A DNA stretch of 64,000 nt from Bradyrhizobium roseum (GTDB lineage: Bacteria > Pseudomonadota > Alphaproteobacteria > Rhizobiales > Xanthobacteraceae), in the NCBI RefSeq assembly GCF_030413175.1, contig NZ_CP129212.1, positions 7,091,001 through 7,155,000 of the forward strand, in the 5' to 3' direction. Below, in pieces: positions 12,331-39,293 of the stretch. Position 1 is the stretch's first letter. Each line of letters opens with the position of its first letter. The translations under genes and the position numbers were made by a program. The notes beneath the pieces are model-generated. The model had not been told where the DNA came from and searched no databases. It saw nothing but the letters and a program-made list of their open reading frames with translations.

Positions 12331-13767
12331 TTGAGTTTCGTCGAACGTCACGGCCTGTGGTCGAAAGAACAGCAGGAAGCCGCCAGCCAGCTGCGCAAGA
12401 TCGTCGAAGAGAAAAACCTCGAAGTCATTCGCCTCTCCTTCCCCGACCAGCACGGCATCCTGCGCGGCAAGACACTGGTCGCCAGCGAAGCATTGGAGTC
12501 GCTGGAAAGCGGCTGCTCCATCACCACGACCATGCTGGCCAAGGATACCTCGCACAAGACGGTGTTCCCGGTGTTTACGGCCGGCGGCGGCTTCGGCATG
12601 AAGGAAATGGAGGGTGCCGCCGACGTGCTGATGGTCGCGGATCCCTCGACGTTTCGTGTACTGCCTTGGGCGCCGACCACCGGCTGGCTGCTGTGCGACC
12701 TGCATTTCAACGACGGCCGCCCGGTGCCGTTCGCCACGCGCAACCTCTATCGCAAAGTGATCGATCAACTCGGCAGCCGCGGCTACGATTTCGTTGCGGG
12801 GCTCGAGGTCGAATTCCACCTCTTCAAGCTCGATGACGCGCACATGGCGCCCGAAGATGCCGGCCAGCCCGGGCGGCCGCCTTCGGTCAGCCTGCTGTCG
12901 CACGGCTATCAATACCTGACCGAGCAGCGCTACGATCAGATGGAGCCGGCGCTTGAAATCATCCGCCGCGACGTGCTGGCGCTCGGCCTGCCGTTGCGAT
13001 CGGTCGAGGTCGAGTTTGGCCCGAGCCAGTGCGAATTCACCTTTGCGCCGACTAGGGGGCTGACGCCCGCCGACAACATGGTGCTGTTTCGGTCAGCCGT
13101 GAAGCAGATCGCGCGGCGCCACGGTTTTCACGCCACCTTCATGTGCCGGCCGAAACTGCCGAACGTGTTTGCTTCCGGCTGGCACCTGCACCAATCGATC
13201 GTCTCGCGCGCGGGCGGCGAGAACGCCTTCATGGCCAAGGATGGCGGCGAAGCGCTGAGCCCGTTTGGCCGTTTCTATCTCGCCGGACTGCTGGCGCACG
13301 CCCGCGCCTCCACCGTATTCACCACGCCGACCATCAACGGCTATAAGCGCTACCGCTCCTATTCGCTGGCGCCGGACCGCGCGATCTGGGGTCGCGACAA
13401 CCGCGGCGTCATGATCCGCGTCCTCGGCGGCCCTGGTGACCCCGCCACGCGGCTGGAAAACCGCATCGGCGAGCCGGCCGCCAACCCCTATCTCTACATG
13501 GCTTCGCAGATTCTCTCCGGACTCGACGGCGTCGACCGCAAGCTCGATCCCGGGCCGTCGGCGGACACGCCTTACGAGACCAAAGCGGCGCTGCTGCCGA
13601 AGAGCCTGCGCGAGGCGGTGTTCGCGCTGAACGACGATCCCTTCTTCCGGCAGGCATTGGGCGCGGAGTTCGTGGATTATTACGTCCACATCAAGAACGC
13701 GGAGATCGAGCGATTCCAGGCCGAGGTATCGGACTGGGAGCACCGCGAATATTTCGAGATGTTTTGA
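12331..13767 (+). CDS. Glutamine-synthetase-like ligase (possible gamma-glutamylamide synthetase)
   Basis: A 478-residue GS-family protein. Metal and nucleotide motifs are present as GLEVEFHLF, the Glu-rich EVEFGPSQCEF, SGWHLHQS (in place of the usual GSGMHxHxS), NGYKRY, and RLENRIGEPAANPYLY. Length and divergence fit the PuuA/GlnT-like ligases, which join glutamate to amines, more than housekeeping GlnA; no Tyr adenylylation-loop signature is obvious. No ATG lies near the N-terminus; the TTG at 12331 has GGAG seven bases upstream and gives a full-length protein. In aniline degradation a similar ligase makes gamma-glutamylanilide for a Rieske dioxygenase, so the neighbouring oxygenase is a tempting partner. 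That is inference. Confidence 0.85.
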   Translation: MSFVERHGLWSKEQQEAASQLRKIVEEKNLEVIRLSFPDQHGILRGKTLVASEALESLESGCSITTTMLAKDTSHKTVFPVFTAGGGFGMKEMEGAADVLMVADPSTFRVLPWAPTTGWLLCDLHFNDGRPVPFATRNLYRKVIDQLGSRGYDFVAGLEVEFHLFKLDDAHMAPEDAGQPGRPPSVSLLSHGYQYLTEQRYDQMEPALEIIRRDVLALGLPLRSVEVEFGPSQCEFTFAPTRGLTPADNMVLFRSAVKQIARRHGFHATFMCRPKLPNVFASGWHLHQSIVSRAGGENAFMAKDGGEALSPFGRFYLAGLLAHARASTVFTTPTINGYKRYRSYSLAPDRAIWGRDNRGVMIRVLGGPGDPATRLENRIGEPAANPYLYMASQILSGLDGVDRKLDPGPSADTPYETKAALLPKSLREAVFALNDDPFFRQALGAEFVDYYVHIKNAEIERFQAEVSDWEHREYFEMF

Positions 13768-26334: not shown

Positions 26335-28194
26335 CTAGCAGGCGATCCACTCGGCTGACGCATCATTATCGAGCGTTGCTACCGCCTGCGCCCGCCGCGT
26401 CAGCACCGCGCGCTGGTTGATGTAACCCTTGTCGGTGATCTCGCCGCCATCAACGGAAGCCGGCTCGGCCAGCAGCAACGCCCGCGTCGCGTGCCCGGAC
26501 GAGTTACCGCTTTGCGCCTTCAGTTTCGCAAGACCCTGCGCGATCGCGCTTCGAACCGCGTCATGGCCGATCACATCTTTCACGTCTGCGCTCTCGGGCA
26601 GGCCCGCAAGCGCCCGGCACGCCGCGATGTTCGGAAACACCAGGAAGCGCACTTCGTCACCGCCATGGCCTGTGACCACGATGTCCTGCGCCAGCGGCGC
26701 CAGCGCGGCGATGCCGGCCACACGCAAGGTGCCGACGTTGACCCAGGTGCCGGAGTTGAGCTTGAAGTCTTCTGCGACGCGACCGTCGAAGAACAAGCCA
26801 AGTTCGGGACGCGCCGGATCGGCGAAGGTCACGGCATCGCCGATCAGATAAAAGCCTTCGCTGTCGAACGCCTGCGCGGTCAATTCCGGCGCCTTCCAGT
26901 AGCCGGGCGTCACGTTGGGACCGCGCACGCGCACCTCCAGCTTGTCGCCCGACGGGATCAGCTTCAATTCGGTGCCCGGAATCGGCACCCCGATATTGCC
27001 GGAGCGCTGCGCCTGAAAATGGCAATCGGTCGCCAGCGGCGAGGTTTCGGTCGAGCCCCAGGCCGACACCATCGGCAGCGCGCGGCCAACGGTCTTGACC
27101 GAGAGTTCTTCCAGCGCATCCCAGAGATTTTGCGGCAGCGCTGCGCCGGCATAAAAGGCGAATTTCACTTCGCCGAAGAATTTATGCCGCAACTCCTCCT
27201 CGCCCCGCAGCGCTGTGATCAGCATGTCAAAGCCGCGCGGCACGTTGAAATAGACCGTTGGTCTCACGCTGCGCAGGTTAGCGAGCGACGTCGCGAACAG
27301 CCCCGGCGCCGGCTTGCCCCCGTCGACATGGAGCGTGCCGCCATTGCGCAGCACCAGGTTGAAATTGTGGTTGGCGCCGAATGTGTGGCTCCACGGCAGC
27401 CAGTCGAGAATCACAAGATCGTCGCCGATGTCGTCGAGGAAGGTCCAGGTCTGCGCCTTGGCCTGCTGGCTTGACGTCAGCATGCGCTGGGTGTTGATCA
27501 CGGCTTTCGGCGTACCAGTCGAGCCCGAGGTGAACAGGAATTTTGCGATCGTATCCGGCGTGATCGCGGCAAAGGCCTTTGCGACGTCAGCCGTCTCCGG
27601 GGTGGTCGCGATGCTGCGAAACGAAACGGCCTCGGCATCGCCAGCACCGCCGCTGACGATCGCCGCCGAATGCAGCGGCTGGATCGCCGCCAGCGCCGCC
27701 GCGAAAGGTTTTGTGCCGGAAACATAGATCGCGCCCGGCTGCAACAGCGCGACCATGCTCTTGAGCTTGTCGAAGTCCTTCGACATCAGCGAATAGGCCG
27801 GCGAGATCGCGGCCGACGGCACGCCGACATGCTGGGCCGCAAGCGCAAACAGCGCGTGTTCGACGCTGTTGTCGGACAGGATCACCAGCGGGCGCGCCGC
27901 GCTCAGGCCTTGCGCGAGAATCCACGCGGCAGCCGAACGCACCTGCTTCAGGGCGGCCTTGTACGTCACCGTCGACCACGGCGCATCGGCACTAACGCGG
28001 TCGGCGAGGAAGATGCGGTCGGGCGCCTGTCGCGCCCATTGCTCCAGCCAGTCGCCGATGCAACGCGCACTCTCGCGCAGCGGCGTCGTTGATTTCAGGA
28101 CGATGCTGCCGTCGGCCCGGCGGTCAGCCATGATCGCAGGCGTCGCGAACAGCGTTTCGGATCGGTCGCGGCCCGGGGCAGCGGCTGGCGTCAT
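26335..28194 (-). CDS. Feruloyl-CoA-synthetase-like acyl-CoA synthetase
   Basis: A 619-residue ANL-family ligase. Motifs: P-loop LFTSGSTGTPKAV, A5 SAWGSTETSPLAT, and the later DGRVAEDFKLNSGTWVNVG, a pattern typical of the long feruloyl-CoA synthetase group (longer than benzoate ligases and with a distinctive C-terminus). It would activate ferulate, p-coumarate or a similar hydroxycinnamate with ATP and CoA. The ATG at 28194 has GGAGG six bases upstream. No enoyl-CoA hydratase/aldolase or vanillin dehydrogenase is nearby, so the rest of the side-chain pathway must lie elsewhere. Substrate is inferred from family resemblance. Confidence 0.8.
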   Translation of the reverse strand: MTPAAAPGRDRSETLFATPAIMADRRADGSIVLKSTTPLRESARCIGDWLEQWARQAPDRIFLADRVSADAPWSTVTYKAALKQVRSAAAWILAQGLSAARPLVILSDNSVEHALFALAAQHVGVPSAAISPAYSLMSKDFDKLKSMVALLQPGAIYVSGTKPFAAALAAIQPLHSAAIVSGGAGDAEAVSFRSIATTPETADVAKAFAAITPDTIAKFLFTSGSTGTPKAVINTQRMLTSSQQAKAQTWTFLDDIGDDLVILDWLPWSHTFGANHNFNLVLRNGGTLHVDGGKPAPGLFATSLANLRSVRPTVYFNVPRGFDMLITALRGEEELRHKFFGEVKFAFYAGAALPQNLWDALEELSVKTVGRALPMVSAWGSTETSPLATDCHFQAQRSGNIGVPIPGTELKLIPSGDKLEVRVRGPNVTPGYWKAPELTAQAFDSEGFYLIGDAVTFADPARPELGLFFDGRVAEDFKLNSGTWVNVGTLRVAGIAALAPLAQDIVVTGHGGDEVRFLVFPNIAACRALAGLPESADVKDVIGHDAVRSAIAQGLAKLKAQSGNSSGHATRALLLAEPASVDGGEITDKGYINQRAVLTRRAQAVATLDNDASAEWIAC

Positions 28195-28423
28195 CGGTTT
28201 CCTCCGCTGCCTCTTGTCATCTTTGTCGGGCAGACAGTTTGCTCTACGCGAGATCGGCTCAACCCGGCAACGCGCGCCGGCCAAAACGACCTGCCTAATT
28301 AATATGCAATCCAGATCCGACAGGACCGGCTAGCTTGGCTAGGCGCCTTGGCAACAGTGAAGCTAAGCGCTTGAAATCGTATAGGGACTGTTTCGCTTCC
28401 CTTCCCGCGACTGATGTACACAA

Positions 28424-28439
28424 TGGCACATCGCTTGCT
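28424..28439 (+). promoter_or_regulatory. Sigma-54 (-24/-12) promoter of the allophanate hydrolase gene
   Basis: TGGCACATCGCTTGCT matches the sigma-54 consensus TGGCAC-R-N4-TTGC-W at every fixed position. Transcription would start near 28450, leaving about 30 bases before the ATG at 28481. Sigma-54 promoters need an activator such as NtrC; no clear NtrC sites were seen upstream. A matching promoter precedes the linked transporter operon at 38612-38627. Confidence 0.7.
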
Positions 28440-28480
28440 ACGTTCCAGGTACCATCCTGCTCGCTGGAGTTTTGCTCGCC

Positions 28481-30283
28481 ATGGGGTCTGACGCGCCCGA
28501 AACCGTTGCCGCCATCGTCGCCGCGCACCGCGCCGGCACCATGACCCCGGCGCAAACCATCGCCCGCTCCTATCAGCGCATTCGCGACCACAGCGATCCC
28601 GCCGTGTTCATCAGCCTGCGCGACGAGAAGGCGGCAATGGCGGAGGCCGAAGCGCTGACGCCGAAGGATGCGGCGGCGCTTCCGTTGTATGGTGTGCCGG
28701 TCGCGGTGAAGGACAATATCGATGCGCAGGGAATGCCGACCACGGCGGCCTGCCCGGCATTCTCCTATTCGCCCACGCAGGATTCGACCGCCGTCGCAAA
28801 ACTACGCGCGGCCGGCGCCATCATCATCGGCAAGACCAATCTCGACCAGTTCGCGACCGGCCTGGTCGGTGTGCGCTCGCCCTACGGCATTCCCGTCAAT
28901 CCGGTCCGCGCCGATCTCGTTCCGGGCGGATCGAGTTCGGGATCGGCAGTCGCGGTTTCGGCAGGTCTGGTGCCGCTCGCGCTCGGCACCGACACGGCGG
29001 GCTCGGGTCGCGTGCCGGCGATGCTCAACAACATCGTCGGGCTGAAGCCGAGCCTCGGATTGATCTCCAACGCCGGGCTGGTGCCGGCGTGCCGAACGCT
29101 GGATTGCATCTCCGTGTTCTCGCTCACCGTGGACGACGCGATGACCGCGCTGGCGGCGCTGGCGGGCCCCGACGGCGCCGATCCATATTCGCGCGACCGG
29201 CCGCTGGGTGCCATGTCGGCGCCCCCCGAACAACTCCGGCTCGGCGTGCCACGCGACGGCCAATTGATCTTCTTCGGCGACCGCGCCGCGGAGAAAGCCT
29301 ATGGCGAGGCACTCGAGCGCTGGACATCGCTCGGCGCCACCTTGGTGGAATTCGATCTGGAGCCGTTTTACGAGACCGCGCGGCTGCTCTATGAGGGGCC
29401 ATGGGTCGCCGAGCGCTACCTCGTCATCCGCGACCTGCTCGCCTCGTCGCCGGATTCGATCCATCCCGTGACGCGCGAGATCACCGCACCCGGCGCACGG
29501 CTGACGGCGGCCGACACCTTTGCTTCGCTCTATCGGCTGCAGGCGCTGCGGCGTACAGCCGAGCGCGTTTTCACTCATTTCGATGCCATGGTGCTACCGA
29601 CCGCGCCAACCGCCTACTCCACGGCGCAGGTTCTCGCCAATCCGATCGAGCTCAACTCCAGGCTCGGCACCTACACCAATTTTGTGAACCTGCTCGATCT
29701 CTGCGGTCTGGCGCTGCCGGCCGCGATGCGCGCCGACGGCATTCCGTTCGGCATCACGCTGCTGGCGCCGGCGGGCCGGGACGCGGCGCTCGCCAGCATC
29801 GGCCGCGTGTTTCATGCCGATACCAAATTGAAGATGGGAGCCAAAGGGCTCGCGCAGCCCGCGCTCGCGCCGTTGCCGGCAACGGTGGGCGGCGATGAAA
29901 TCACCCTCGCCGTGGTCGGCGCGCATCTTTCCGGCATGGCGCTCAACGGCGAACTGCAGGCGCTCGGCGCACGCCTGCTCGAAGCGACCATGACCGCGCC
30001 GGACTACAAACTTTATGCGCTCGACACGGTGCCGCCGAAGCCCGGCATGCTGCGTCTCGACACCGGCAAGGGGAATTCGATCAAGCTGGAATTGTGGGCG
30101 CTGTCGGCGGCAGCGTTCGGAAAGTTCGTCGCCGCGATCCCGCCACCGCTCGGGATCGGCACGGTGAAGCTGGCGGATGGAAGAGCGGTGAAGGGATTCG
30201 TGGTCGAGCCGGTGGCGATCGAAGGCGCGCGCGACATTTCGGCGTATGGCGGCTGGCGGGCGTTTGTGGCCGAAAAGGTTTAG
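28481..30283 (+). CDS. atzF: Allophanate hydrolase (AtzF-type)
   Basis: A 600-residue amidase-signature enzyme of the AtzF type, which hydrolyses allophanate (urea-1-carboxylate) to ammonia and CO2. The Ser-cisSer-Lys triad is visible in VAVKDNID (Lys), GGSSSGSA (cis-Ser) and TDTAGSGRVPA (nucleophilic Ser). The extra C-terminal domain of about 150 residues (from LAVVGAHLSGMALNG) is that of AtzF and urea amidolyase. ATG 28481 is chosen over a TTG nine bases earlier. A consensus sigma-54 promoter sits upstream, so nitrogen limitation should induce it. The AtzE/G/H-like genes on the other strand complete the pathway. It faces the gntR gene across a palindromic repeat. Confidence 0.93.
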   Translation: MGSDAPETVAAIVAAHRAGTMTPAQTIARSYQRIRDHSDPAVFISLRDEKAAMAEAEALTPKDAAALPLYGVPVAVKDNIDAQGMPTTAACPAFSYSPTQDSTAVAKLRAAGAIIIGKTNLDQFATGLVGVRSPYGIPVNPVRADLVPGGSSSGSAVAVSAGLVPLALGTDTAGSGRVPAMLNNIVGLKPSLGLISNAGLVPACRTLDCISVFSLTVDDAMTALAALAGPDGADPYSRDRPLGAMSAPPEQLRLGVPRDGQLIFFGDRAAEKAYGEALERWTSLGATLVEFDLEPFYETARLLYEGPWVAERYLVIRDLLASSPDSIHPVTREITAPGARLTAADTFASLYRLQALRRTAERVFTHFDAMVLPTAPTAYSTAQVLANPIELNSRLGTYTNFVNLLDLCGLALPAAMRADGIPFGITLLAPAGRDAALASIGRVFHADTKLKMGAKGLAQPALAPLPATVGGDEITLAVVGAHLSGMALNGELQALGARLLEATMTAPDYKLYALDTVPPKPGMLRLDTGKGNSIKLELWALSAAAFGKFVAAIPPPLGIGTVKLADGRAVKGFVVEPVAIEGARDISAYGGWRAFVAEKV

Positions 30284-30286
30284 GCC

Positions 30287-30416
30287 GTCATTCCGGGGCG
30301 CGCGAAGCGCGAGCCCGGAATCCAAGTCACCGCAAAGCCGGTATTGATTTTATAATGAGCGCCTTCCGCGTGGAGAGTTGGATTCCGGGTTCGCGCTTCG
30401 CGCGCCCCGGAATGAC
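30287..30416. repeat. Long palindromic repeat between atzF and gntR
   Basis: Arms of 39 bases (30287-30325 and 30378-30416) pair with one mismatch; they begin GTCATTCCGGGGCGCGCGAA. The loop of 52 bases is unrelated to neighbours. Related elements lie at 52970-53097 and 57194-57233. Between two convergent genes it may end both transcripts. Confidence 0.85.
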
Positions 30417-30442
30417 GGGGACAACTCCCCGACGGCCCACTC

Positions 30443-31147
30443 CTACACCGACACCGCGTAAATCTCGTATTCCCCGCGCACCAGTTCGATATGCGCGCGC
30501 ATTGCCGCCGCAGCCCCGTTCTTGTCGCCGCGCATGATCGCGACCACGACGAGGTCGTGTTCGGCGTGCGATTTCGCCAGCCGTCCCAGATTGCGGAACT
30601 GGGCGCGGCGGAACGGCTGCACGCGCACCCGCGTCGCCAACGTCATCTCGGCGATGTAGCCGTTCTGAGATCCGGCATAGATCGCGTTGTGAAAGCGTTC
30701 GTTGACCTCGTGAAAGCGCTCGGGGTTGCCGGCGTGGCTCAGCACGCGCAACTCCTCGTGGATCGCCTCGAGCTTCTGGCGATCGGCCGGCGGCATCCGC
30801 TCGGCGGCAAACCACGCGCACAGCGCTTCGAGTTCGGCCATCGCCTCGAACATTTCCTTCAGCCGGTCGGGCGAAGGCTGCGCCACGACGGCGCCGCGAT
30901 GGGCGCGAGACTCGACCAGGCCGCTCGCCACGAGCTGGCGCAGCGCTTCGCGGACCGGGGTGCGCGACACAGAGAAACGCCGCGCGATGTCGGTCTCGTC
31001 GAGCGCCGATCCCGGCGGCAGTACGCCGCGCACGATCTCGTCGGCGAGTTGAAGCCGCAATTCTTCCGCGCGCGTAACCTTGTCGCGCAGCGGTGACGGC
31101 CGGTCGACGCGGCGAACAACGGTTTGCGGTAGATCCTCCAGACTCAT
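30443..31147 (-). CDS. GntR-family (FCD) transcriptional regulator
   Basis: A 234-residue FadR-type regulator. The N-terminal winged helix ([39 protein letters not shown] region) is unmistakable, and the C-terminal all-helical FCD domain has the metal-binding [12 protein letters not shown] pattern. The ATG overlaps the AtzH-like stop by four bases, so it is the last gene of the operon with the transporter and AtzG/E/H genes, and probably regulates it in response to a pathway intermediate. A perfect palindrome AAGGTTTG-TGC-CAAACCTT overlaps the operon promoter at 38615-38633 and could be its operator. Confidence 0.93.
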
Positions 31148-31536
31148 GCCGTTGGCTCGTCGATCATGCTGACATGGGCTGCAACAATCCTCCACCCTTC
31201 AGGAAATCGCACCCAGGTCTGCATCTGCCGCCCGACCCTGCCCGGCGCGTTGTCGCGATAGAACAGCGTCGAGGCGACGGCGGTCTCGCGGCCGTAGCTC
31301 GTGATCACGGTCTTGTCGGTCCGGCGCATCAGCCCGGCCGGCGAGCGCGCGGCGCGAAAGCCCTGAATCGCCTCATAGCCATAGAGATTCTCGCCGATGC
31401 CATAGCGCAGCGTGCGGGAATCATTGCGGAACAGTTCGCCCAGCACCGCGACGTCGTTCGACACCAGCGCCTTTTCGTAACGCGCGAATTGCGCGGTCAC
31501 CTCGGCCAGCACGTCCGGCAGATCGATCTCCATCAT
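31144..31536 (-). CDS. atzH: AtzH-like protein (DUF3225, SnoaL fold)
   Basis: A 130-residue protein of the SnoaL/NTF2-like fold. [36 protein letters not shown] and [17 protein letters not shown] are the family's conserved blocks. AtzH, a member of the DUF3225 family, hydrolyses 1,3-dicarboxyurea to allophanate and so prevents a dead end when AtzE acts. Start ATG 31536 shares its A with the atzE stop (TGATG) and follows GAGG. Placement between atzE and gntR matches gene orders known for such clusters. Function is by family and context. Confidence 0.82.
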
Positions 31537-32933
31537 CACACTCCTCTCGGGGCCGGTGCGGCGGCAGCGCCCATTTTTTCCAGCGCATGCGCCACGCGCA
31601 GCGCGATATCCTCCCGCCACGGTGCGGCGATGATCTGCACGCCGATCGGCATCGGCTGCAGCGGCACGGGGACTGCGACCACGGGCAGGCCGATGAACGA
31701 AATCGGCTGGGTGTGGATGCCGATATTGGCGCGCACCGGCAGTTCGACGCCGTCCAGTACGAACGTCGCCTGTCCGAGTTTTGGCGCGATGCAGGGCGTG
31801 GCCGGCGCGATGATCACGTCGACCGACTTGAACAGCTCCAGCACTTTGGCGCGATACCAGCGGCGGAATTTCTGCGCGCGGTCGACCAAAGGCGCCGGGA
31901 CCATGGCGCCGGCGATCAAGCGATCACGCACCGCCGGATCGAAATCGTTCGCCCGGGTGCGGAGGCGATCGAGATGCAGCGAAGCGCCCTCCGTGGTGGA
32001 GATGACATAAGCCGCGGCGCGAGCGCGAGCAGCCTCGGGGATTTCGATCGTTTGCGTGGCATCGAGCGCCTTCGCGATGCGCGAAACGGCTTCGACCGCT
32101 TCGGGGAAGACGTTCTTCTGAAAATATCCGCCGGCGATCGCAATCCGCAAACCTGCAAGGCCCTGCGCCAGCAGCGGCGTGACCGGTTCGACCGGGCGCG
32201 AGGTGCAGGCCGCATCGTCGGCATCCGGTCCCTGCATCGCATCGTAGGCCAGCGCAAGATCGCCGACATTGCGCGCGAACGGGCCGAGGTGATCGAAACT
32301 GGCGACGAAAGGAAACGAGCGCGCGCGCGACAGCCGGCCGTAGGTGGGCTTCAAACCAAAGATGCCGCAGAACGACGACGGCACCCGGATCGACCCGTTG
32401 GTGTCGGACCCCAGTGCGATCGGCACCAGCGCGCCGCCGACCGCGCTGCCCGATCCGCCGGAGGAGCCGCCGGTCATCCGGGTCGGATCATGCGGATTGC
32501 GCGACGGGCCGTCATGCACGTTCTCGCCCGTAAAGTCGTAGGCGTATTCGCCCATGTTGAGCGCGCCGACCAGCACGGCGCCGGCCGCTTCCATCCGCTC
32601 GATCAACGTGGCGTCGCGCGACGATGGCGCGAGGTCGCGGTTGATCTTCGAGCCGGCGCGGGTGGAGAGGCCCTTGACGTCGAACAGGTTCTTGACCGCG
32701 AACGGCACGCCGGCCAGCGGCCCGACTTTCTCGCCGGCCGCGATCTTCGCGTCGACCGCCTTGGCCGTGGTGCGGGCGCGATCAGCGGTGACGTCGGTGA
32801 AGGAATTCAGCACGCCGTCATGGGCAGCGATCCGCGCCAGCGCGGCTTCGGTCGCATCGAGCGCGGAGAATTGGCGGTCGGTTATCGCCTGCGCGATTTG
32901 CTGGGCCGACATCCCATCAGTGTTTACGGTCAT
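31536..32933 (-). CDS. atzE: AtzE-type amidase (1-carboxybiuret hydrolase subunit)
   Basis: A 465-residue amidase-signature protein. The catalytic triad is in [11 protein letters not shown] (Lys), [10 protein letters not shown] (cis-Ser) and [13 protein letters not shown] (nucleophilic Ser). The AtzE subgroup, related to GatA, deaminates 1-carboxybiuret, a product of cyanuric-acid ring opening, with the small subunit AtzG. AtzG lies just upstream (5-base gap) and AtzH just downstream. Cyanuric acid hydrolase (AtzD) is not in the window, so the natural source of carboxylated urea here is open; a different N-carboxy-urea substrate is possible. Confidence 0.9.
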
Positions 32934-32938
32934 GACGA

Positions 32939-33121
32939 TCAGGCCGAATAGATGGTGGCGGGCTCGGTTTCATCCGGCAGCGGGAATTCATCGACCAGCC
33001 TTGCCAGCCTCAGCGACACTTCGAGGTTTGCCCGCACGGCGGGGCGCCAGGCTTCCTCGACCGGCAGCGCCAGCGCCAGCGCAACAGCGTCGATGTAACT
33101 ATCAAGGGGTTCGGCAGCCAT
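32939..33121 (-). CDS. atzG: AtzG-like small subunit (DUF4089)
   Basis: A 60-residue helical protein: YIDAVALALALPVEEAWRP and ANLEVSLRLARLVDEFPLPD match the DUF4089/AtzG pattern, a GatC-like subunit that stabilises AtzE. It lies 5 bases before atzE and 18 bases after the ABC ATPase gene in one operon. GGAG precedes the ATG at 33121; a TTG five codons earlier is the alternative. Short length is normal for this family. Confidence 0.85.
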   Translation of the reverse strand: MAAEPLDSYIDAVALALALPVEEAWRPAVRANLEVSLRLARLVDEFPLPDETEPATIYSA

Positions 33122-33139
33122 TTCACTCCCACTCAAGCT

Positions 33140-34906
33140 CTAGTGAACCGGCAACGGCGGATGCGGGATCGCCGTCAACAATTCCTTGGTATAGGCGTCT
33201 TGGGGATCGCCGAGCACCTGTTCGGATGAACCCTGTTCGACGATGCGCCCCGACCGCATCACGATGACACGATCGCACAACAAACGTACCACATTCAGAT
33301 CGTGCGACACGAACAAATAGCTCATGCCCATCGACGCCTTGAGGTCCTGCAGCAGATTGAGCACGACCGCCTGCACCGAGACGTCGAGCGCTGCGGTCGG
33401 CTCGTCGAGGATCACCAGTTTTGGATGCAGCGCGATGGCGCGCGCGATGCCGACGCGGGCCTTCTGGCCGCCGGATAGCTGGTGCGGGAAACGATCGAGC
33501 AAATTGACGGGGAGGCCGACAAGGCCGGCGAGTTCCTCGCAGCGCGCGCGCAGCGCGTCACGTCCCCTGATGTCGCCGAGTTGCATGATCGGATCGGCGA
33601 TGGCGCGCGCGGCGGTGAAGCGCGGGTTGAGGCTGTCGGTCGGATCCTGGAACACCATCTGGATGCTTTTGCGCAGCGGCAGCCGGGCAAAGGCATTCGG
33701 CAGGATGGCGCCGATCTCGTCGCCGTCGAACACGATGCGGCCGGAAGTCTGGTCCAGGAGCCGCATCACCATCATCGAGGTCGTCGACTTGCCGCAGCCG
33801 GACTCGCCGACCAGGCCGACGCTCTCGCCGTGGCCGACGGTGAAGCTGATGCCGTCGACCGCGCGGAAGATTTCGGCTTCCACCGGCGGCTTGCGGGAGA
33901 ACAGTTTTGACAGCACGGCCGTGGCGCCCTGACGGGGATATTCCTTGACCAGCTTTTCGACGGTGAGGAGGGGTTTTGCACTATCGTCACCCCCGGGCTT
34001 GACCCGGGGGTCCATCGCTGGAGAAGAATCTGGCGAAGAGGGATGGATGGCCGGGTCAGGCTCGGCCATGACGGAAGTGCCCTCCTCTTCCGGCAGCAAG
34101 TCCCGCAACGACACACCGAGCCGCGGCGTCGCGCGCATCAGCTTCTTGGTATAGGCGTGTTCGGGCCTGGCGAAGATATCCGCCGACTTCGCCGTCTCGA
34201 CGACGCGGCCTTTCTCCATCACCACCACGCGGTCGCAATAGGCGGCGGCCAGTCCCAGGTCGTGCGTGATCAGGATGGTCGACATGTTCCGGCGTTTGGT
34301 CAGTTCGACGACCAGGTCCATCACCGCCTTCTGCGTGGTGACGTCGAGGCCGGTGGTCGGCTCATCGGCGATCAGGAGCTGCGGATTGCAGGCGAGCGCC
34401 AGCGCGATGACCACGCGCTGGCACATGCCGCCGGACAGTTCGAACGGATAGGCGTGATATCGCTCACGCGGGCGGGCAATCTTGACCTGCTCCAGCGCTT
34501 CGATGGCTTTCTCGCCGCGGTCATTGGAGGACGTCTGCACGTGCTGGCGCAGCACGTCCTCGATCTGGTCGCCCACCTTGCGGATCGGATTGAGCGCCGC
34601 GCGCGGGTTCTGAAAAATCATCGAGATTTCGCGGCCGCGCAGGTCGCGCATCTGGTTCTCGCTGGCGGCCTTGACGTCGATGCCGGAGAACATCACCGAA
34701 CCGTCGGCGATCCGCCCCGCCCGGTCGAGGATGCGCATCACCGCATAGGACGTCACCGACTTGCCGGAGCCGGACTCGCCGACGATGCCGAGCGTCTCGC
34801 CCTTGGCAACGGAGATGTTGACGTGCTGCACGGCCTTGACGATGCCGCGTCGGGTGGAGAACTCGACGGTGAGGTCGTGGACGTCGAGCAGGGGCTGCGC
34901 GGTCAT
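33140..34906 (-). CDS. Dual-domain oligopeptide/dipeptide-type ABC ATPase
   Basis: A 588-residue protein with two complete ABC ATPase domains, as in DppD-DppF fusions (GsiA/YejF-type). Domain 1 has Walker A GESGSGKS and signature LSGGMCQRV; domain 2 has GESGCGKS and LSGGQKARVGIARAI, each with a Walker B (LLIADEPTTGLD, LVILDEPTAALD). The linker between them contains a translated palindromic repeat (see 33985-34075). GGGAGG lies close before the ATG. Works with the two permeases and the binding protein upstream; the operon then continues into AtzG/E/H, so the imported substrate is probably a nitrogen-rich urea or biuret-like compound or a short peptide. Confidence 0.92.
   Translation of the reverse strand: MTAQPLLDVHDLTVEFSTRRGIVKAVQHVNISVAKGETLGIVGESGSGKSVTSYAVMRILDRAGRIADGSVMFSGIDVKAASENQMRDLRGREISMIFQNPRAALNPIRKVGDQIEDVLRQHVQTSSNDRGEKAIEALEQVKIARPRERYHAYPFELSGGMCQRVVIALALACNPQLLIADEPTTGLDVTTQKAVMDLVVELTKRRNMSTILITHDLGLAAAYCDRVVVMEKGRVVETAKSADIFARPEHAYTKKLMRATPRLGVSLRDLLPEEEGTSVMAEPDPAIHPSSPDSSPAMDPRVKPGGDDSAKPLLTVEKLVKEYPRQGATAVLSKLFSRKPPVEAEIFRAVDGISFTVGHGESVGLVGESGCGKSTTSMMVMRLLDQTSGRIVFDGDEIGAILPNAFARLPLRKSIQMVFQDPTDSLNPRFTAARAIADPIMQLGDIRGRDALRARCEELAGLVGLPVNLLDRFPHQLSGGQKARVGIARAIALHPKLVILDEPTAALDVSVQAVVLNLLQDLKASMGMSYLFVSHDLNVVRLLCDRVIVMRSGRIVEQGSSEQVLGDPQDAYTKELLTAIPHPPLPVH
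33985..34075. repeat. Palindromic repeat inside the ABC ATPase gene
   Basis: Two palindromes of the kind usually found between genes sit in frame in the linker: CCCCCGGG-CTTGA-CCCGGGGG at 33990-34010 and a GGATGGCCGGGTCAGGCTCGGCCATG block near 34044-34071. They encode about 30 residues including MDPRVKPGGDD, a translated-repeat peptide. The reading frame and both ATPase domains are intact. Confidence 0.75.
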
Positions 34907-35015
34907 GACCGCCTCCCTAACAAAAACATCGAAAACAACCCCATGCACAGTAGGGATGTCACTGATTTTGTTGCGGTTTCAAATTCACCGGAACGGGCCA
35001 CACCAAAAGCCGCCA

Positions 35016-35915
35016 TCACGTCCTCCGCTGCGGGTCGACGATGTCGCGCAGGCCGTCGCCGAGCAGGTTGAAGCAGAACACCGCGATCATCAGCGCCAGC
35101 CCCGGAAACAGCGCGATCCACCATTCGCCCGACACCATGAAGCCCGCCCCCTCGGCAACCATGATGCCCCACTCCGCCGTCGGCGGCCGCACGCCGAGCC
35201 CGATAAAGGACAATCCTGCGGCGTTGAGGATCGCGTAGCCCATGGTCAGCGACATCTGCACGATCATGATCGGCATGATGTTGGGCAGGATGTGCACCAG
35301 CAGGATCCGCATCTCGCCATTGCCCGAGAGACGCGCGGCCTGCACGAAGCCGGCGTTGCGTCGGACATTGGCTTCCGCGCGGGCCACGCGCGCATAAAGC
35401 GGAAAATTCACGATCGCGGTCGCGATGATGATGTTCTGCACGGTGTTGCCGAGCGCGGCGACGATGCCCATCGCCAGCACGAACAGCGGAAACGCCATGA
35501 TAGTGTCGGCGACGCGCCCGACGATGCGGTCGGTCCAGCCGCCAAAGTAGCCGGCGGCGATGCCGGCGAGCCCGCCCATCAGGAATACAAGCGCGACAGA
35601 GGCGACAGCGATGAACGTATCGAGACGCGTCGCGACCACGACGCGGCTGAAGATGTCGCGGCCCAGCTGATCGGTGCCGAACCAGTGCGCCGCCGACGGC
35701 GGCTTCAAGGCCGAGGCGGTATCGCTGGCGAGCGGATCGTAGGGCACGATGTAAGGGCCGAAGATCGCGGCAAACAGGATCACGACCAGCAGGCCAAAGG
35801 CGAAAGCGGTGACGCGGTTCTCGCCAAGCACATAGCGGGTGTGTTCGAAGATCGCGGCCAGTCCCGAGGTCCGCGCGGGTCCGGCAGGTTCAACGGCAGG
35901 CAACACAGCACTCAT
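35016..35915 (-). CDS. Peptide/nickel-type ABC transporter permease (DppC-like)
   Basis: A 299-residue inner-membrane permease. HWFGTDQLGRDIFSRVV is the DppC/OppC hallmark, and RRNAGFVQAARLSGNG plus GLSFIGLGVRPP give the ATPase-contact loop and the C-terminal motif. Around six membrane spans are visible. It starts 9 bases after the DppB-like stop; the gap to the ATPase gene of 109 bases is larger but has no sign of a separate promoter. Confidence 0.92.
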   Translation of the reverse strand: MSAVLPAVEPAGPARTSGLAAIFEHTRYVLGENRVTAFAFGLLVVILFAAIFGPYIVPYDPLASDTASALKPPSAAHWFGTDQLGRDIFSRVVVATRLDTFIAVASVALVFLMGGLAGIAAGYFGGWTDRIVGRVADTIMAFPLFVLAMGIVAALGNTVQNIIIATAIVNFPLYARVARAEANVRRNAGFVQAARLSGNGEMRILLVHILPNIMPIMIVQMSLTMGYAILNAAGLSFIGLGVRPPTAEWGIMVAEGAGFMVSGEWWIALFPGLALMIAVFCFNLLGDGLRDIVDPQRRT

Positions 35916-35924
35916 GTTTCAACC

Positions 35925-36938
35925 TCACCCTTCCAGCCGCACGCGCGGATCGATGACACCGTAGAGAATGTCGATGACCAGATTGAGCAGCACGTACATG
36001 ACCGCCATGGTCAGCACAAAACCCTGCACCGGCGCGAAATCCGAGGAGATCAGCGCCTCGACGGCGTAGGAGCCGATGCCGGGCCAGGCGAACACTTTTT
36101 CGACCAGCACGTTGGCGCCGAGCAGGAACGAGAACACCATGCTGAGCGTGGTGATGACCGGCAGCATGGCGTTGCGGAAAGCATAGGTGACGATCACGGT
36201 GGAAGGCGAAAGCCCTGAGGCGCGGGCGGTTCGGACGAACTCGGACGCCAGCACCGCCAGCATCGAGGCCCGGGTCATGCGCGCGATCGGCGCCAGCGAG
36301 AAGATCGCCAGCGTCGCCGCCGGCAGGATCAGCTGGCTGAGCGCCGAACGAAAGGCCTCGAAATCGCGCGCGATCAGCGTGTCGATCAGATAGAAGCCCG
36401 TGATCGTCGGCGGCGCGCTGTAGAACACATCGAGCCGGCCGAGCGGCGCCGGCGACCAGCCGAGCCTGAAATAGAACACGTAGACCAGCACCAGCCCGGT
36501 AAAGAACACCGGCAATGAAACACCCGCGGTCGTCGTGATACGGCAGAGATGATCGATCCATGACCCCGGCCGCGTGGCGGCCAACACGCCCAGCGGGATG
36601 GCGATGATAACCGACACAAAGAGGCCCAGCAGCGTCAGCTCGGCCGATGCCGGCAGGCGGTTGCGGATCTCGGCGGCGACCGGCTGGCCCGTGGTCAGCG
36701 AATTGCCGAAATCGCCATGCACGAGGTCGCTGGTGTAGCGGAAGAACTGCTCGATCAGCGGCTTGTCGAGCCCGAGTTTCTTGCGGATCTGCTCGACCGC
36801 CTCCTTGGTCGCGGCAGGCCCTGCGAAGTACGCAGCCGGATCGCCCGGCAGCGCGCGCGTCAGCAGAAAGGTGACGATCACGACTCCGATCAGCGACGGG
36901 ATCGCAAACAGCAGCCGTTTGCCGATCATGGTCAGCAT
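35925..36938 (-). CDS. Peptide/nickel-type ABC transporter permease (DppB-like)
   Basis: A 337-residue permease with the DppB/OppB pattern: an N-terminal span (LLFAIPSLIGVVIVTFLLTRALPGDPA) continuing into a periplasmic stretch, the ATPase-contact loop EFVRTARASGLSPSTV, and a C-terminal NLVIDILYGVIDPRVR. The gene starts 6 bases after the binding-protein stop. It forms the channel with the DppC-like protein. Confidence 0.92.
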   Translation of the reverse strand: MLTMIGKRLLFAIPSLIGVVIVTFLLTRALPGDPAAYFAGPAATKEAVEQIRKKLGLDKPLIEQFFRYTSDLVHGDFGNSLTTGQPVAAEIRNRLPASAELTLLGLFVSVIIAIPLGVLAATRPGSWIDHLCRITTTAGVSLPVFFTGLVLVYVFYFRLGWSPAPLGRLDVFYSAPPTITGFYLIDTLIARDFEAFRSALSQLILPAATLAIFSLAPIARMTRASMLAVLASEFVRTARASGLSPSTVIVTYAFRNAMLPVITTLSMVFSFLLGANVLVEKVFAWPGIGSYAVEALISSDFAPVQGFVLTMAVMYVLLNLVIDILYGVIDPRVRLEG

Positions 36939-36944
36939 GGCGGA

Positions 36945-38564
36945 TTACGCCTTCACCAGCGCGCGATAGTCGAGCCGGCGGTGGAACCAGTACTGATAGC
37001 CCGAGATGTTCTTCTGCATCGCGACGTTGACGAAGGGCTGGTACAGCGGGATGCGCGGGATGTCGGTGAAGGCGAGATCGACAAAACCTTTGACGCTTTT
37101 GTCGTAAGTCGCGGTGTCGCCGGTCGAGGCGGCCGTACGCGCGCCGTCGATCAGTTTGTCCATCTCGGGCGACTTGTAGCTCATGGTGTTGAAGACGGAA
37201 TTGTTGCCGTGATAGCACCAGTAGAAGAAGTATTCGGGGTAATCGAGCCAGCCCGAGAACACATTGGTGTAGAGCGGCATTTCCTTCTTGTTCAGCTCGG
37301 TGCGCCAGTTGGCGCCGGGCACCTTGTTGATCGTGGTCTTGATGCCGATCTGGGCGAGCGACTCCTGCACCAGCACGCAGAGCGGCTCGTTGACGCCGGC
37401 GAAATTCAGGTCGAATGAAATCGTGGTCTCGAAGCCTTGGGCGTAGCCGGCTTCGGCCAGCAGCGCCTTGGCCTTGGCCATGTCGGTGGAATATTTGGTC
37501 GGCTGCGGCCACGCGACCTCGGTGGCCTTGTCAGCCGCGGCGCCGAACATCGGATTGGCGAGGCCGAACAGCACCGCGTCCATGATCTTCTGATACGGCA
37601 ACGCGTAGGCGACCGCCTGACGCACCTTGGGATTATCGAATGGCGGCTTGGTGACGTTCATGCCGATATACTGGATGCCGTTGGAGAACGGCAGCGACAC
37701 CACGTTGAGCTTGCCGTTGGCCTTCATCTCCTGGAAATCCTTGAACGGCAGTTCGTAGGAGATATCGGCGTCGCCACGCTCCAGCAGCGCGCGACGGTTG
37801 CCGGCTTGCGGCACCATGCGCCAGATCACGCGCTTGATCTTCGGCAAGGGGCCGCCGACCCACTCGTCGTTGCGCTCCATGATCACTTCGGTGCCGGCGG
37901 TCCATTTTGTCAACTTGTAGGCACCGGAGCCCGCGGTCTGCTGCTTGGTGTATTCGAGACCCCAGGGATCCTTCTCGCTGGCGTTCTTCTTCACCAGTTC
38001 GGAGTTGACGATGCAGGGCACGATGACCGCGAGATCGGGAATCGTCAGGCGGTCCTTCTTGGCAAAGTCCACCCGCACGGTGTTGTCGTCAACGACGACG
38101 AACTGCTCGGTCTTGGTCAGCGAGCCCGCACTCATCTGGAAGGTCGGGAAACCACCCACGGAGACCGCGCGGTCGAGCGACCATTTGACGTCCTTGGCCG
38201 TGACCGGCGCGCCGTCGTGGAATTTGGCGTTCTTCTTCAGCTTGAAGGTCACCGACATGTCGTCGATCTTCATGTCGTCGGCGAGTTCGCCCTTGAACTT
38301 GTCGCGGTCGTAATACGGCACGCCGCCGGGACCGCTCTTCATCTCGTGCGTGATCAGGCGGTCGTAGCAATTCCACGACACCTCATAGCCGGGCACGTTG
38401 GTGCCGACGCCATGGATGTCTAAGTTGTTCGGACCGCCCTCCGAAACGATCAGCAGGGTCTCGGACCGTGACTGCGCCTGGGCCGCAGACCAGATCGCCG
38501 GCGCGGGCACCATCGCGCCCGCCGCAGCTCCAGTGACGGATTTGAGGAAATCGCGACGCTTCAT
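36945..38564 (-). CDS. Peptide-type ABC transporter substrate-binding protein
   Basis: A 539-residue periplasmic binding protein of the type II SBP_bac_5 family. The N-terminus MKRRDFLKSVTGAAAGAMV is a twin-arginine-like export signal. Body motifs include FKLKKNAKFHDGAPVTAKDV, the family's signature, and RQAVAYALPYQKIMD. GGAG lies seven bases before the ATG. It is the first gene of an eight-gene operon ending in gntR, driven by a likely sigma-54 promoter at 38612-38627. Ligand unknown; a nitrogen-rich compound is inferred from the amidases downstream. Confidence 0.92.
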   Translation of the reverse strand: MKRRDFLKSVTGAAAGAMVPAPAIWSAAQAQSRSETLLIVSEGGPNNLDIHGVGTNVPGYEVSWNCYDRLITHEMKSGPGGVPYYDRDKFKGELADDMKIDDMSVTFKLKKNAKFHDGAPVTAKDVKWSLDRAVSVGGFPTFQMSAGSLTKTEQFVVVDDNTVRVDFAKKDRLTIPDLAVIVPCIVNSELVKKNASEKDPWGLEYTKQQTAGSGAYKLTKWTAGTEVIMERNDEWVGGPLPKIKRVIWRMVPQAGNRRALLERGDADISYELPFKDFQEMKANGKLNVVSLPFSNGIQYIGMNVTKPPFDNPKVRQAVAYALPYQKIMDAVLFGLANPMFGAAADKATEVAWPQPTKYSTDMAKAKALLAEAGYAQGFETTISFDLNFAGVNEPLCVLVQESLAQIGIKTTINKVPGANWRTELNKKEMPLYTNVFSGWLDYPEYFFYWCYHGNNSVFNTMSYKSPEMDKLIDGARTAASTGDTATYDKSVKGFVDLAFTDIPRIPLYQPFVNVAMQKNISGYQYWFHRRLDYRALVKA

Positions 38565-38611
38565 GGGGATGCTCCAAATGCCTTCAGGGAAAATGGCTTT
38601 GGAACGGGGAT

Positions 38612-38627
38612 CGCAAGGTTTGTGCCA
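38612..38627 (-). promoter_or_regulatory. Sigma-54 (-24/-12) promoter of the transporter-atzGEH-gntR operon
   Basis: On the minus strand TGGCACAAACCTTGCG matches TGGCAC-R-N4-TTGC with only the final W position off. The start of transcription would be near 38601, some 37 bases before the first ATG. A perfect palindrome AAGGTTTG-TGC-CAAACCTT (38615-38633) overlaps it and could be a repressor site. The rest of the 546-base spacer to 39110 contains AT-rich sequence and no convincing gene. Confidence 0.65.
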
Positions 38628-39110
38628 AACCTTAAGGAGGCGTTTATTTCGCCTTATCCTGTTGAGTTATCTTGATATTTTTAGACCGCTAGGACAGTGC
38701 GCCGCGCGCAACACCCCAGCGAATTGCATACAAAGACGCATATTTGCTTATTAATTAATCAAAAATTCTTTGCGCTCCATTGTTGGGCGACGATCAAAAT
38801 CGGCCACAGGAGGTCCTTCAACTCGTGGAGGGCGGCCTTTTCCAACCCAGCAAAAAACTACGGTGGCGATCCTGCCCAAAGCATTGGCGGACAAAAAGAA
38901 GCGGCTTGAGTGCGCATTTCTCCGAAATCAAACGGAACCGCGCGCCCGCGAATTTTTCTGAACTTGCGCGGAAACAAGTGTTTTTCGTTTTCTTACAAAA
39001 AGTGGACGAAACCACGCGTCGAGGGCGGTCCGTCAAACGTCATGACGCTTGCCTTTGAGGCTTGATGTGAGACCGTTTATGGCGCGTCACATTCCTGAAA
39101 GGAGAGCCAG

Positions 39111-39293
39111 ATGGCGGATATTGCATCAGACTTGAACCATCTTCAGAGCCTGCTGAGTCAGATCTCAATAATGGCTTCGTTGCCCCAGACTAAAGGCGAC
39201 GATCTTGGCGCGAAGATTGCGGATTGTTTTGCGCCGCTCGTCCGCATTCACGAGGCGGTCAGGAAATCACCGCACAGCGGGCGCCGTTTCTAG
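39111..39293 (+). CDS. Small protein of unknown function
   Basis: A 60-residue open frame with a strong GGAG site before its ATG. The sequence begins with a helix-like MADIASDLNHLQSLLSQISI and lacks signal or membrane segments. I do not recognise a family. It lies alone between an AT-rich spacer and a block of palindromic repeats, with no operon partner. The good ribosome-binding site is the main evidence that it is translated. Confidence 0.5.
   Translation: MADIASDLNHLQSLLSQISIMASLPQTKGDDLGAKIADCFAPLVRIHEAVRKSPHSGRRF

What the first reader, a model, noticed from the sequence alone, without database searches (positions are those of the whole stretch)
28424..38627. Two sigma-54 promoters bracket an allophanate/biuret-like nitrogen regulon
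TGGCACATCGCTTGCT before atzF (28424-28439, plus strand) and TGGCACAAACCTTGCG before the transporter-atzGEH-gntR operon (38612-38627, minus strand) fit the -24/-12 consensus at all or nearly all fixed positions. I noticed no other TGGCAC-N5-TTGC in the window. Both lie 30-40 bases before start codons with good ribosome-binding sites. The two units, about 10 kb apart and convergent, would thus respond together to nitrogen status.
Basis: partly seen in the sequence, partly recalled or inferred. Interest (0 to 1): 0.8.

Follow-up and report, generated by a model that had tools for sequence, protein, structure and literature searches.

The report
Nitrogen-starvation switch for a scavenging cluster
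A soil bacterium of the Bradyrhizobium group carries two facing gene units for taking up and breaking down an unidentified nitrogen-rich compound, and both have conserved switches of the kind that turns genes on when nitrogen runs short.

Summary
TGGCACN5TTGC occurs exactly twice in the window, 28424-28438 (+) before atzF and 38613-38627 (-) before the transporter-atzGEH-gntR operon (0.20 expected). Genome-wide the motif alone is not enriched (26 versus 25 for the reversed pattern). The evidence is conservation: exact at 61 of 63 operon promoters and 67 of 72 atzF promoters, window included. I added the missing activator site: a 17-bp dyad, TGCYYAN5TRRGCA, 132 and 134 bases upstream of the two -24 elements. 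A matrix built from glnK2 and glnBA promoters of the genus ranks these two sites first and second in the window. One ntrC and one rpoN are in the genome. Both promoters also share TGYAYRCAAT, perhaps the operator of the operon's own GntR. In Bradyrhizobium DOA9, published rpoN mutants have lower atzF, atzE and dpp expression, and what appears to be the operon's -24/-12 site is already listed there (PMC13207237). The allophanate step is well grounded; the 'biuret-like' substrate is open. An ordinary but well-documented Ntr regulon member; the imported compound is the real unknown.

The parts
28424..28438 (+). sigma-54 -24/-12 promoter of atzF (TGGCACATCGCTTGC)
   Evidence: exact match; exact in 67 of 72 atzF upstreams incl. 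the window, 9/10 in 3, 7/10 in 2
38613..38627 (-). sigma-54 -24/-12 promoter of the transporter-atzGEH-gntR operon (TGGCACAAACCTTGC)
   Evidence: exact match; exact in 61 of 63 upstreams incl. the window, 9/10 in 2
28292..28308 (+). NtrC-type enhancer dyad of atzF (TGCCTAATTAATATGCA), 132 bases upstream of the -24 T
   Evidence: 11 of 12 consensus positions; rank 2 of all 17-mers of the window with a glnK2/glnBA matrix, 15.6 bits
38745..38761 (-). NtrC-type enhancer dyad of the operon (TGATTAATTAATAAGCA), 134 bases upstream of the -24 T
   Evidence: 11 of 12 positions; rank 1 in the window, 16.1 bits
38773..38789 (-). weak possible second enhancer dyad of the operon (CGCCCAACAATGGAGCG), 162 bases upstream of the -24 T
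   Evidence: 9.4 bits; second-best site 28-29 bases upstream of the main one in 31 of 63 loci, but only 10 of 63 second sites pass the 95% null
28415..28424 (+). TGTACACAAT, shared motif abutting the -24 element; possible GntR operator
   Evidence: 10/10 to TGYAYRCAAT in 67 of 70 atzF promoters; best hit at -9 in 68 of 70
38723..38732 (-). TGTATGCAAT, the same motif, between enhancer and promoter of the operon; possible GntR operator
   Evidence: 10/10 in 54 of 63 operon upstreams, 9/10 in 7, 8/10 in 2
28364..28376 (+). IHF-like site between enhancer and promoter of atzF (weak; 8 of 9 positions by my count; consensus recalled)
   Evidence: 8 of 9 positions in 22 of 70 loci versus about 1.4% of shuffles
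38571..38605 (-). inverted repeat GTTCCAAA/TTTGGAGC in the operon leader, 3' arm over the ribosome-binding site; meaning open
   Evidence: own arms pair better than in all 200 partner swaps
28481..30283 (+). atzF, allophanate hydrolase
   Evidence: TIGR02713 807 bits, cut-off 511; only AH_C-domain match in the genome
30443..31150 (-). gntR, FCD-type GntR regulator
   Evidence: PF00392 + PF07729
31144..31539 (-). atzH/hpxZ-like
   Evidence: NF033625 HpxZ 202 bits, cut-off 135; PF11533 AtzH-like
31536..32933 (-). atzE-family amidohydrolase
   Evidence: TIGR02715 737 bits, cut-off 426; best PDB match 6c62, there named biuret hydrolase, 502 bits
32939..33121 (-). atzG-like small subunit
   Evidence: PF13318 62 bits; no NCBIfam match
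33140..34906 (-). fused Dpp/Opp-type ABC ATPase
   Evidence: two ABC_tran stretches
35016..35915 (-). ABC permease (DppC-like)
35925..36938 (-). ABC permease (DppB-like)
36945..38564 (-). family-5 solute-binding protein, first gene of the operon
   Evidence: PF00496 277 bits

Best explanation
atzF and the transporter-atzG-atzE-atzH-gntR operon form one nitrogen-scavenging regulon. When nitrogen is short, phosphorylated NtrC binds the dyads at -132 and -134 and, through DNA looping (possibly helped by IHF), opens sigma-54 RNA polymerase at both -24/-12 promoters. Inferred second layer: the operon's own GntR/FCD protein binds TGYAYRCAAT. At atzF this would block sigma-54 polymerase directly; at the operon it would act next to the enhancer. 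The block would be lifted by the imported substrate or a breakdown product. Metabolically, an imported ureido or amide compound would be deaminated by AtzGE, decarboxylated by AtzH to allophanate, and split by AtzF to ammonia and carbon dioxide. Shown: sequence, conservation, shared enhancer. Shown by others in a relative: lower expression in rpoN mutants. Inferred: NtrC as the binder, the GntR role, the pathway order and the substrate.
For: Exact promoters in 61 of 63 and 67 of 72 loci. Dyad scoring 11-12 of 12 in 62 of 70 atzF and 39 of 63 operon upstreams versus about 0.5% and 0.9% of shuffles; distances fall mainly in classes about one helical turn apart. The dyad was read off these same upstreams, so the gln test matters: the same dyad near -160, -121 and -100 of glnK2 (86 of 90 sites score 10 or more, shifts of up to 2 bases allowed; 30 of 31 genomes searched) and near -103 (20 of 20 score 10-11) and -123 (8-10) of glnBA (20 of the 31 genomes). 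A matrix from those sites ranks the two atz sites 1 and 2 of the window, 16.1 and 15.6 bits, next 11.5. ntrC over its cut-off once; one rpoN. Published rpoN mutants of Bradyrhizobium DOA9 have lower atzF, atzE, dppB, dppD, dppF; its Table 1 lists TGGCACGAACCTTGC at -43 before a peptide-type solute-binding protein, the sequence and position of locus L039. Only one AH_C gene and no urea carboxylase over cut-off.
Against: No expression or binding data for this organism, and I saw no ntrC-mutant data for the cluster. The DOA9 mutants are Fix- and were compared under nitrogen-fixing conditions, so part of the effect may be indirect, and the atzF promoter sequence is not in the paper's main text. 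glnII has only weak dyads (9 of 12 at -98 and -144); for urtA I read only 9 of 12, by eye, at about -134 (one search lists none at 10 or more). Two further exact sigma-54 sites, before an amidase-like (L007) and a hydrolase-like (L005) frame, have no dyad of 9 or more. The motif is not enriched genome-wide. GntR binding is inference, and gntR and the motif do not always go together: L099 has gntR but no exact copy, and the promoters of L085 (operon), L084 and L093 (atzF) lack it.
Confidence: 0.87

Rival explanations
1. The promoters are sigma-54 dependent, but a pathway-specific activator or NifA rather than NtrC drives them, so they answer to a substrate or to nitrogen fixation and not to general nitrogen status.
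For: Below the NtrC cut-off the genome has five further matches of 316-411 bits to the NtrC model, i.e. other activators of this type; the DOA9 data come from nitrogen-fixing conditions; two other exact sigma-54 sites of possible nitrogen genes lack the dyad.
Against: The dyad is the one at glnK2 and glnBA and is absent (none at 9 or more of 12) upstream of the sites I read as nifH and nifV. None of the nine cluster proteins is a sigma-54 activator.
Confidence: 0.09
2. The exact motif matches are chance and the genes are read from ordinary sigma-70 promoters.
For: Genome-wide count equals the reversed-pattern control; of the 24 exact copies I looked at (two of 26 were not fetched) about ten look like promoters by context (my reading).
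Against: Near-complete conservation of the sites while many neighbouring columns of the operon alignment are only 30-60% conserved; a conserved enhancer at fixed distances; rpoN-mutant data in DOA9.
Confidence: 0.03
3. The cluster degrades oxalurate or another purine-derived ureide (HpxXYZ-like) rather than a 1-carboxybiuret-type compound, and atzF is a neighbour with its own substrate. This concerns the substrate and is compatible with the regulation above.
For: The AtzH-like protein passes the HpxZ cut-off; the catalytic and pocket residues named for AtzH are the same here, in AtzH and in the uncharacterised 2rcd (my reading, numbering offset 3), so they do not decide.
Against: atzF is convergent behind the operon in 71 of 80 loci and co-directional right behind gntR in L098; it is convergent in two outgroup families (L169, L173) and shares both regulatory elements. 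Among the proteins examined between 26 and 39 kb none is an hpxW/ggt type.
Confidence: 0.35

Closest known systems
atzR-atzDGEHF of Pseudomonas sp. ADP (cyanuric acid operon; sigma-54/NtrC control of atzR is recalled, not read here)
   Same: AtzG, AtzE, AtzH, AtzF homologues; link to nitrogen limitation
   Different: no AtzD found (search without a ringing control), no LysR gene in the cluster; atzF is a separate convergent unit; sigma-54 and NtrC-type sites lie directly on the structural genes; own ABC importer and GntR
atzG-atzE-atzH clusters of Proteobacteria described in PMC6219798 (section 14 read; passages)
   Same: conserved atzG-atzE-atzH order, ABC transporter, sometimes allophanate hydrolase
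   Different: there atzF lies upstream on the same strand; here it is convergent downstream; that section gives no regulatory sites
Bradyrhizobium sp. DOA9 RpoN regulon, PMC13207237 (sections 10 and 15 and passages incl. much of Table 1 read)
   Same: orthologous locus (L039); lower atzF, atzE, dpp in rpoN mutants; what appears to be the operon -24/-12 site listed
   Different: in the sections and passages read: no pairing of the two promoters as one regulon, no enhancer or GntR site for them; atzF promoter sequence absent from the main text
hpxWXYZ oxalurate genes of enterobacteria (name from NCBIfam NF033625; rest recalled)
   Same: HpxZ-like protein with AtzE/AtzG-type partners
   Different: no hpxW among the proteins examined; allophanate hydrolase present; GntR and sigma-54 sites

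Membership tests
NtrC/sigma-54 (Ntr) regulon | -24/-12 promoter with invariant GG and GC | tested here: met
NtrC/sigma-54 (Ntr) regulon | NtrC-type enhancer dyad about 80-160 bp upstream, as at known Ntr promoters of the genus | tested here: met
NtrC/sigma-54 (Ntr) regulon | ntrC and rpoN present in the genome | tested here: met
NtrC/sigma-54 (Ntr) regulon | expression falls in rpoN or ntrC mutants | not testable with these tools
   rpoN effect reported for DOA9; no ntrC-mutant data in what I read
Cyanuric acid catabolic operon atzDGEHF | AtzG, AtzE, AtzH and AtzF homologues present | tested here: met
Cyanuric acid catabolic operon atzDGEHF | cyanuric acid hydrolase (AtzD/TrzD) | tested here: inconclusive
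   no PF09663 match in the genome, but the controls were silent too
Cyanuric acid catabolic operon atzDGEHF | one operon, all genes on one strand | tested here: not met
   atzF convergent
Urea amidolyase pathway (urea carboxylase + allophanate hydrolase) | urea carboxylase | tested here: not met
   16 partial matches, none over cut-off, in the genome; one of 14 control genomes over cut-off
hpxWXYZ oxalurate pathway | HpxZ-type protein | tested here: met
   NF033625 202 bits, cut-off 135
hpxWXYZ oxalurate pathway | HpxW/ggt gene in the cluster | tested here: not met
   none among the ten proteins examined between 26 and 39 kb
GntR/FCD operator | binding of the operon's GntR to TGYAYRCAAT | not testable with these tools
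   motif near-invariant at both promoters; no exact copy in the two loci without gntR, L043 and L046, but none either in L084, L085 and L099, which have gntR

The most novel reading that the evidence does not exclude
This is the native pathway from which the cyanuric acid genes were recruited: an NtrC-activated, GntR-repressed uptake and degradation system for a natural carboxylated urea-type compound that feeds allophanate to the genome's only AtzF without cyanuric acid hydrolase or urea carboxylase. Its dual promoter, with a repressor site abutting the -24 element, would integrate nitrogen hunger with substrate presence.
Probability: 0.3. Interest if true: 0.62.

Novelty: new member of a known kind. 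Interest (0 to 1): 0.38.

Why it matters
PMC6219798 states that the genetic contexts of atzH-like genes gave little further evidence of the specific function of AtzH. A conserved NtrC/sigma-54 regulon joining a dedicated importer, AtzGEH, AtzF and a GntR sensor supplies a context: the natural role is probably nitrogen scavenging, the route probably runs through allophanate, and the GntR ligand and the solute-binding protein are two handles for finding the compound. The dyad TGCYYAN5TRRGCA is also a usable enhancer model for Bradyrhizobium.

Tried and rejected
Motif counts alone: not enriched at two mismatches in the window nor exactly in the genome; the case rests on conservation.

Classical TGCACYN5RGTGCA form of the NtrC site (recalled): none at 10 or more of 12 within 250 bases upstream of the glnK2, glnBA or glnII promoters; the copies found in those loci were L105:3184 (downstream) and L112:2978 and 3564 (more than 300 bases upstream). 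The genus form differs in the inner half-site.

The exact dyad pattern has four places in the genome against one for the reversed pattern; one is the glnK2 enhancer, the other three (L107-L109) were scanned for motifs but their genes were not identified. The two window dyads, one mismatch each, are not among the four.

Leader hairpins: in the operon leader the arms of each locus pair better than in all 200 partner swaps (17.9 versus at most 17.1, 63 loci), but relatedness was not corrected for; in the atzF leader 192 of 200 swaps were as good or better (59 loci). The start site expected from sigma-54 spacing (recalled) falls within the 5' arm, so an RNA hairpin may not be complete. No Rfam family matched 28000-39200. 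Left unexplained.

AtzD absence: the family search gave nothing, but its controls were silent too, so it is not used as proof. AtzH pocket residues do not decide the substrate.

IHF-like sites: above chance in part of the loci (operon 34 of 63 with 8 or more of 9 positions versus about 3.4% of shuffles, atzF 22 of 70 versus 1.4%); weak in the window at the operon. Second enhancer in the operon near -162: weak.

A genus-wide urtA comparison did not complete.

Rows dropped before counts: of 80 relatives, 18 lacked a usable operon start with 400 bases upstream and 9 a usable atzF start; the dyad and motif counts also drop the two atzF loci below 9/10 (L094, L098). Of 26 exact sigma-54 sites in the genome two were not fetched. 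Of 31 genomes with glnK2, 30 loci were read, and glnBA in 20. Of 75 genomes with AtzE over the threshold among 297, 20 were fetched.
Full report
What was claimed and what is there. The two 16-base sites are present at the stated coordinates and strands. TGGCACN5TTGC without mismatch occurs twice in the window, against 0.20 expected; 1 of 100 shuffles reached two. With two mismatches allowed the count is at chance (71 versus 75.8). In the 7.32-Mb genome 26 exact copies stand against 25 of the reversed pattern, so the motif by itself proves nothing. I looked at 24 of the 26 (22, two in the window; two were not fetched); about ten look like promoters by context, among them those I read as nifH and nifV from the open frames.

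Genes. Profile searches give: atzF allophanate hydrolase (28481-30283, +); then on the minus strand solute-binding protein (36945-38564), two permeases, a fused ATPase, AtzG-like, AtzE-family, AtzH/HpxZ-like and an FCD-type GntR regulator (ends 30443). The AtzE-family protein's best PDB match is 6c62 (502 bits; named biuret hydrolase there), as I recall the AtzE of Pseudomonas ADP. The AtzH-like protein matches AtzH 6bjt (156 bits) and the uncharacterised 2rcd (157 bits) equally. AtzF is the only AH_C-domain match in the genome, and no urea carboxylase reaches its cut-off (16 partial matches; one of 14 control genomes passes), so urea carboxylase is an unlikely source of its allophanate. No AtzD-type hydrolase was found, but that search had no ringing control.

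Promoter conservation. A scan of GTDB species contigs gave 80 loci with related AtzE; 72 of the 80 titles say Bradyrhizobium. The complete order solute-binding protein to gntR is present in 64 of 80, convergent atzF in 71 of 80, both in 58 (some contigs are cut short). Among those with a usable start and 400 bases upstream, window included, the exact pattern stands at 61 of 63 operon starts (9 of 10 positions in the other two) and 67 of 72 atzF starts (9 of 10 in three, 7 of 10 in two: L094 and L098). In L098 atzF lies right behind gntR on the same strand. In L094 TGTACACAAT with an exact -24/-12 lies about 2.5 kb above atzF. In L087 and L094, where no transporter gene was found, an exact sigma-54 site lies 115 and 90 bases before the atzG match instead; in L099 a 9-of-10 site lies 365 bases before it.

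Enhancer. The alignments show conserved islands in otherwise more variable intergenic DNA. One is a 17-bp dyad, TGCYYAN5TRRGCA. It scores 11 or 12 of 12 in 62 of 70 atzF and 39 of 63 operon upstreams, against about 0.5% and 0.9% of dinucleotide shuffles. Among upstreams scoring 10 or more, its start falls at -129 to -134 (46 loci) or -119 to -123 (21) from the -24 T at atzF, with one elsewhere, and at -132 to -136 (41), -122 to -125 (8) or -109 to -111 (3) at the operon, with 8 elsewhere; the classes are about one helical turn apart. Because the pattern was read off these same sequences, a second test was needed. The pattern has four sites in the whole genome (one for the reversed pattern), one of them just upstream of a glnK gene. 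Of 31 genomes of the genus searched, 30 glnK2 loci were read, this genome included: the promoter is TGGCACGGCATTTGAT in 30 of 30, with dyads near -160, -121 and -100 (86 of 90 sites score 10 or more, allowing shifts of two bases). In 20 of those genomes, this one not among them, the glnBA promoter carries a dyad near -103 (10-11 of 12 in 20 of 20) and a weaker one near -123 (8-10); in this genome glnBA scores 10 at -103. nifH and nifV, expected NifA targets, have none scoring 9 or more. A matrix built only from the gln sites (112 different ones) ranks the two atz dyads first and second among all 17-mers of the window, 16.1 and 15.6 bits against 11.5 for the third; with it the best site passes the 99% null of base shuffles in 53 of 63 operon and 68 of 70 atzF upstreams. 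The choice of gln positions was guided by the earlier pattern, so this is strong but not fully blind. Against a universal rule: glnII shows only weak sites, and the sigma-54 sites before the amidase-like L007 and hydrolase-like L005 frames show none. A single match passes the NtrC equivalog cut-off (742.7 bits) and a single sigma-54 is present. Caulobacter NtrC ChIP binding at glnBA and glnK, with a motif distinguishable from that of E. coli, is reported in PMC10274813 (passages read).

Second regulator. TGYAYRCAAT is near-invariant at both promoters: it abuts the -24 element at atzF (10 of 10 positions in 67 of 70, best hit at -9 in 68 of 70) and lies between enhancer and promoter at the operon (10 of 10 in 54 of 63, 9 in seven, 8 in two). 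The only regulator gene in the cluster is the FCD-type GntR, whose family binds short inverted repeats of this kind (recalled). The two loci without gntR, L043 and L046, contain no exact copy, but neither do L084, L085 and L099, which have gntR, so co-occurrence does not prove the link. I infer a repressor lifted by a pathway compound.

Beyond the genus. Of 297 genomes of the order, 75 have an AtzE at E 1e-130 or better; I fetched 20. Two from other families keep the importer series upstream of atzE with convergent atzF: L169 complete with atzG and gntR, L173 without a detected atzG or gntR. They have TGGCACN5TTGC 55 and 112 bases before the solute-binding protein match, with dyads of 10 and 12 of 12 at -110 and -141. 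L181 has convergent atzF and gntR, no importer of this type detected, and a 12-of-12 dyad 109 bases above an exact sigma-54 site about 7.6 kb upstream of atzE. In the other 16 the importer series was not found in this arrangement; nine of them have some TGGCA[CT]N5TTGC site, with best dyads of 8 to 11, at various places, and seven have none.

What is already known. PMC13207237 (2026) reports that rpoN mutants of Bradyrhizobium sp. DOA9 under microaerobic nitrogen-fixing conditions have strongly lower atzF and lower atzE, dppB, dppD and dppF (section 10 read), and its Table 1 lists TGGCACGAACCTTGC at -43 before a peptide/nickel solute-binding protein (passages). DOA9 is locus L039, whose operon promoter has that sequence and distance, so I take them to be the same site. 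The atzF site is not in the paper's main text. I did not see the enhancer, the GntR-type site or the pairing of the two units in the listings of the seven paper searches made or in the passages read; most subscription papers are outside that library.

Verdict. The finding is right in observation and, on balance, in interpretation. It is a well-supported member of the NtrC/sigma-54 regulon rather than a new kind of system. What remains interesting is the substrate and the second layer of control.

Noticed in passing
window 30285-30418: A 47-nt inverted repeat (94% complementary, 40 nt between arms) fills the gap between convergent atzF and gntR; a 21-base piece of it recurs in the same gap in three of the 80 relatives (L024, L063, L066). 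Looks like a palindromic repeat element that may serve as a two-way terminator.
   Followed up: partly
window 12736-13752: A glutamine-synthetase-family gene (Gln-synt_C 282 bits) lies inside the window, outside the finding.
   Followed up: no
L011 (G000:C1:6782513-6782633): Two exact sigma-54 sites stand back to back between divergent open frames that read like ABC solute-binding proteins; one has a 10-of-12 enhancer dyad at -130. Possibly a further Ntr-controlled uptake pair.
   Followed up: partly
L002 (G000:C1:7228980): The identical 16-mer TGGCACATCGCTTGCT precedes an open frame that reads like a peroxiredoxin, and again a short open frame in L001.
   Followed up: no
L085:2405-4201: In a Tardiphaga MAG an AtzF only 54% identical lies divergent to the solute-binding protein gene, as if another copy had replaced the usual one.
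   Followed up: no
window 38571-38605: Inverted repeat in the operon leader whose 3' arm covers the ribosome-binding site and whose arms match locus by locus better than partner swaps; unexplained, because the expected start lies within the 5' arm.
   Followed up: partly
L118-L147 upstream of glnK2: The glnK2 promoter reads TTGAT where the consensus has TTGCT at the -12 element, in 30 of 30 loci read, with three enhancer dyads.
   Followed up: partly
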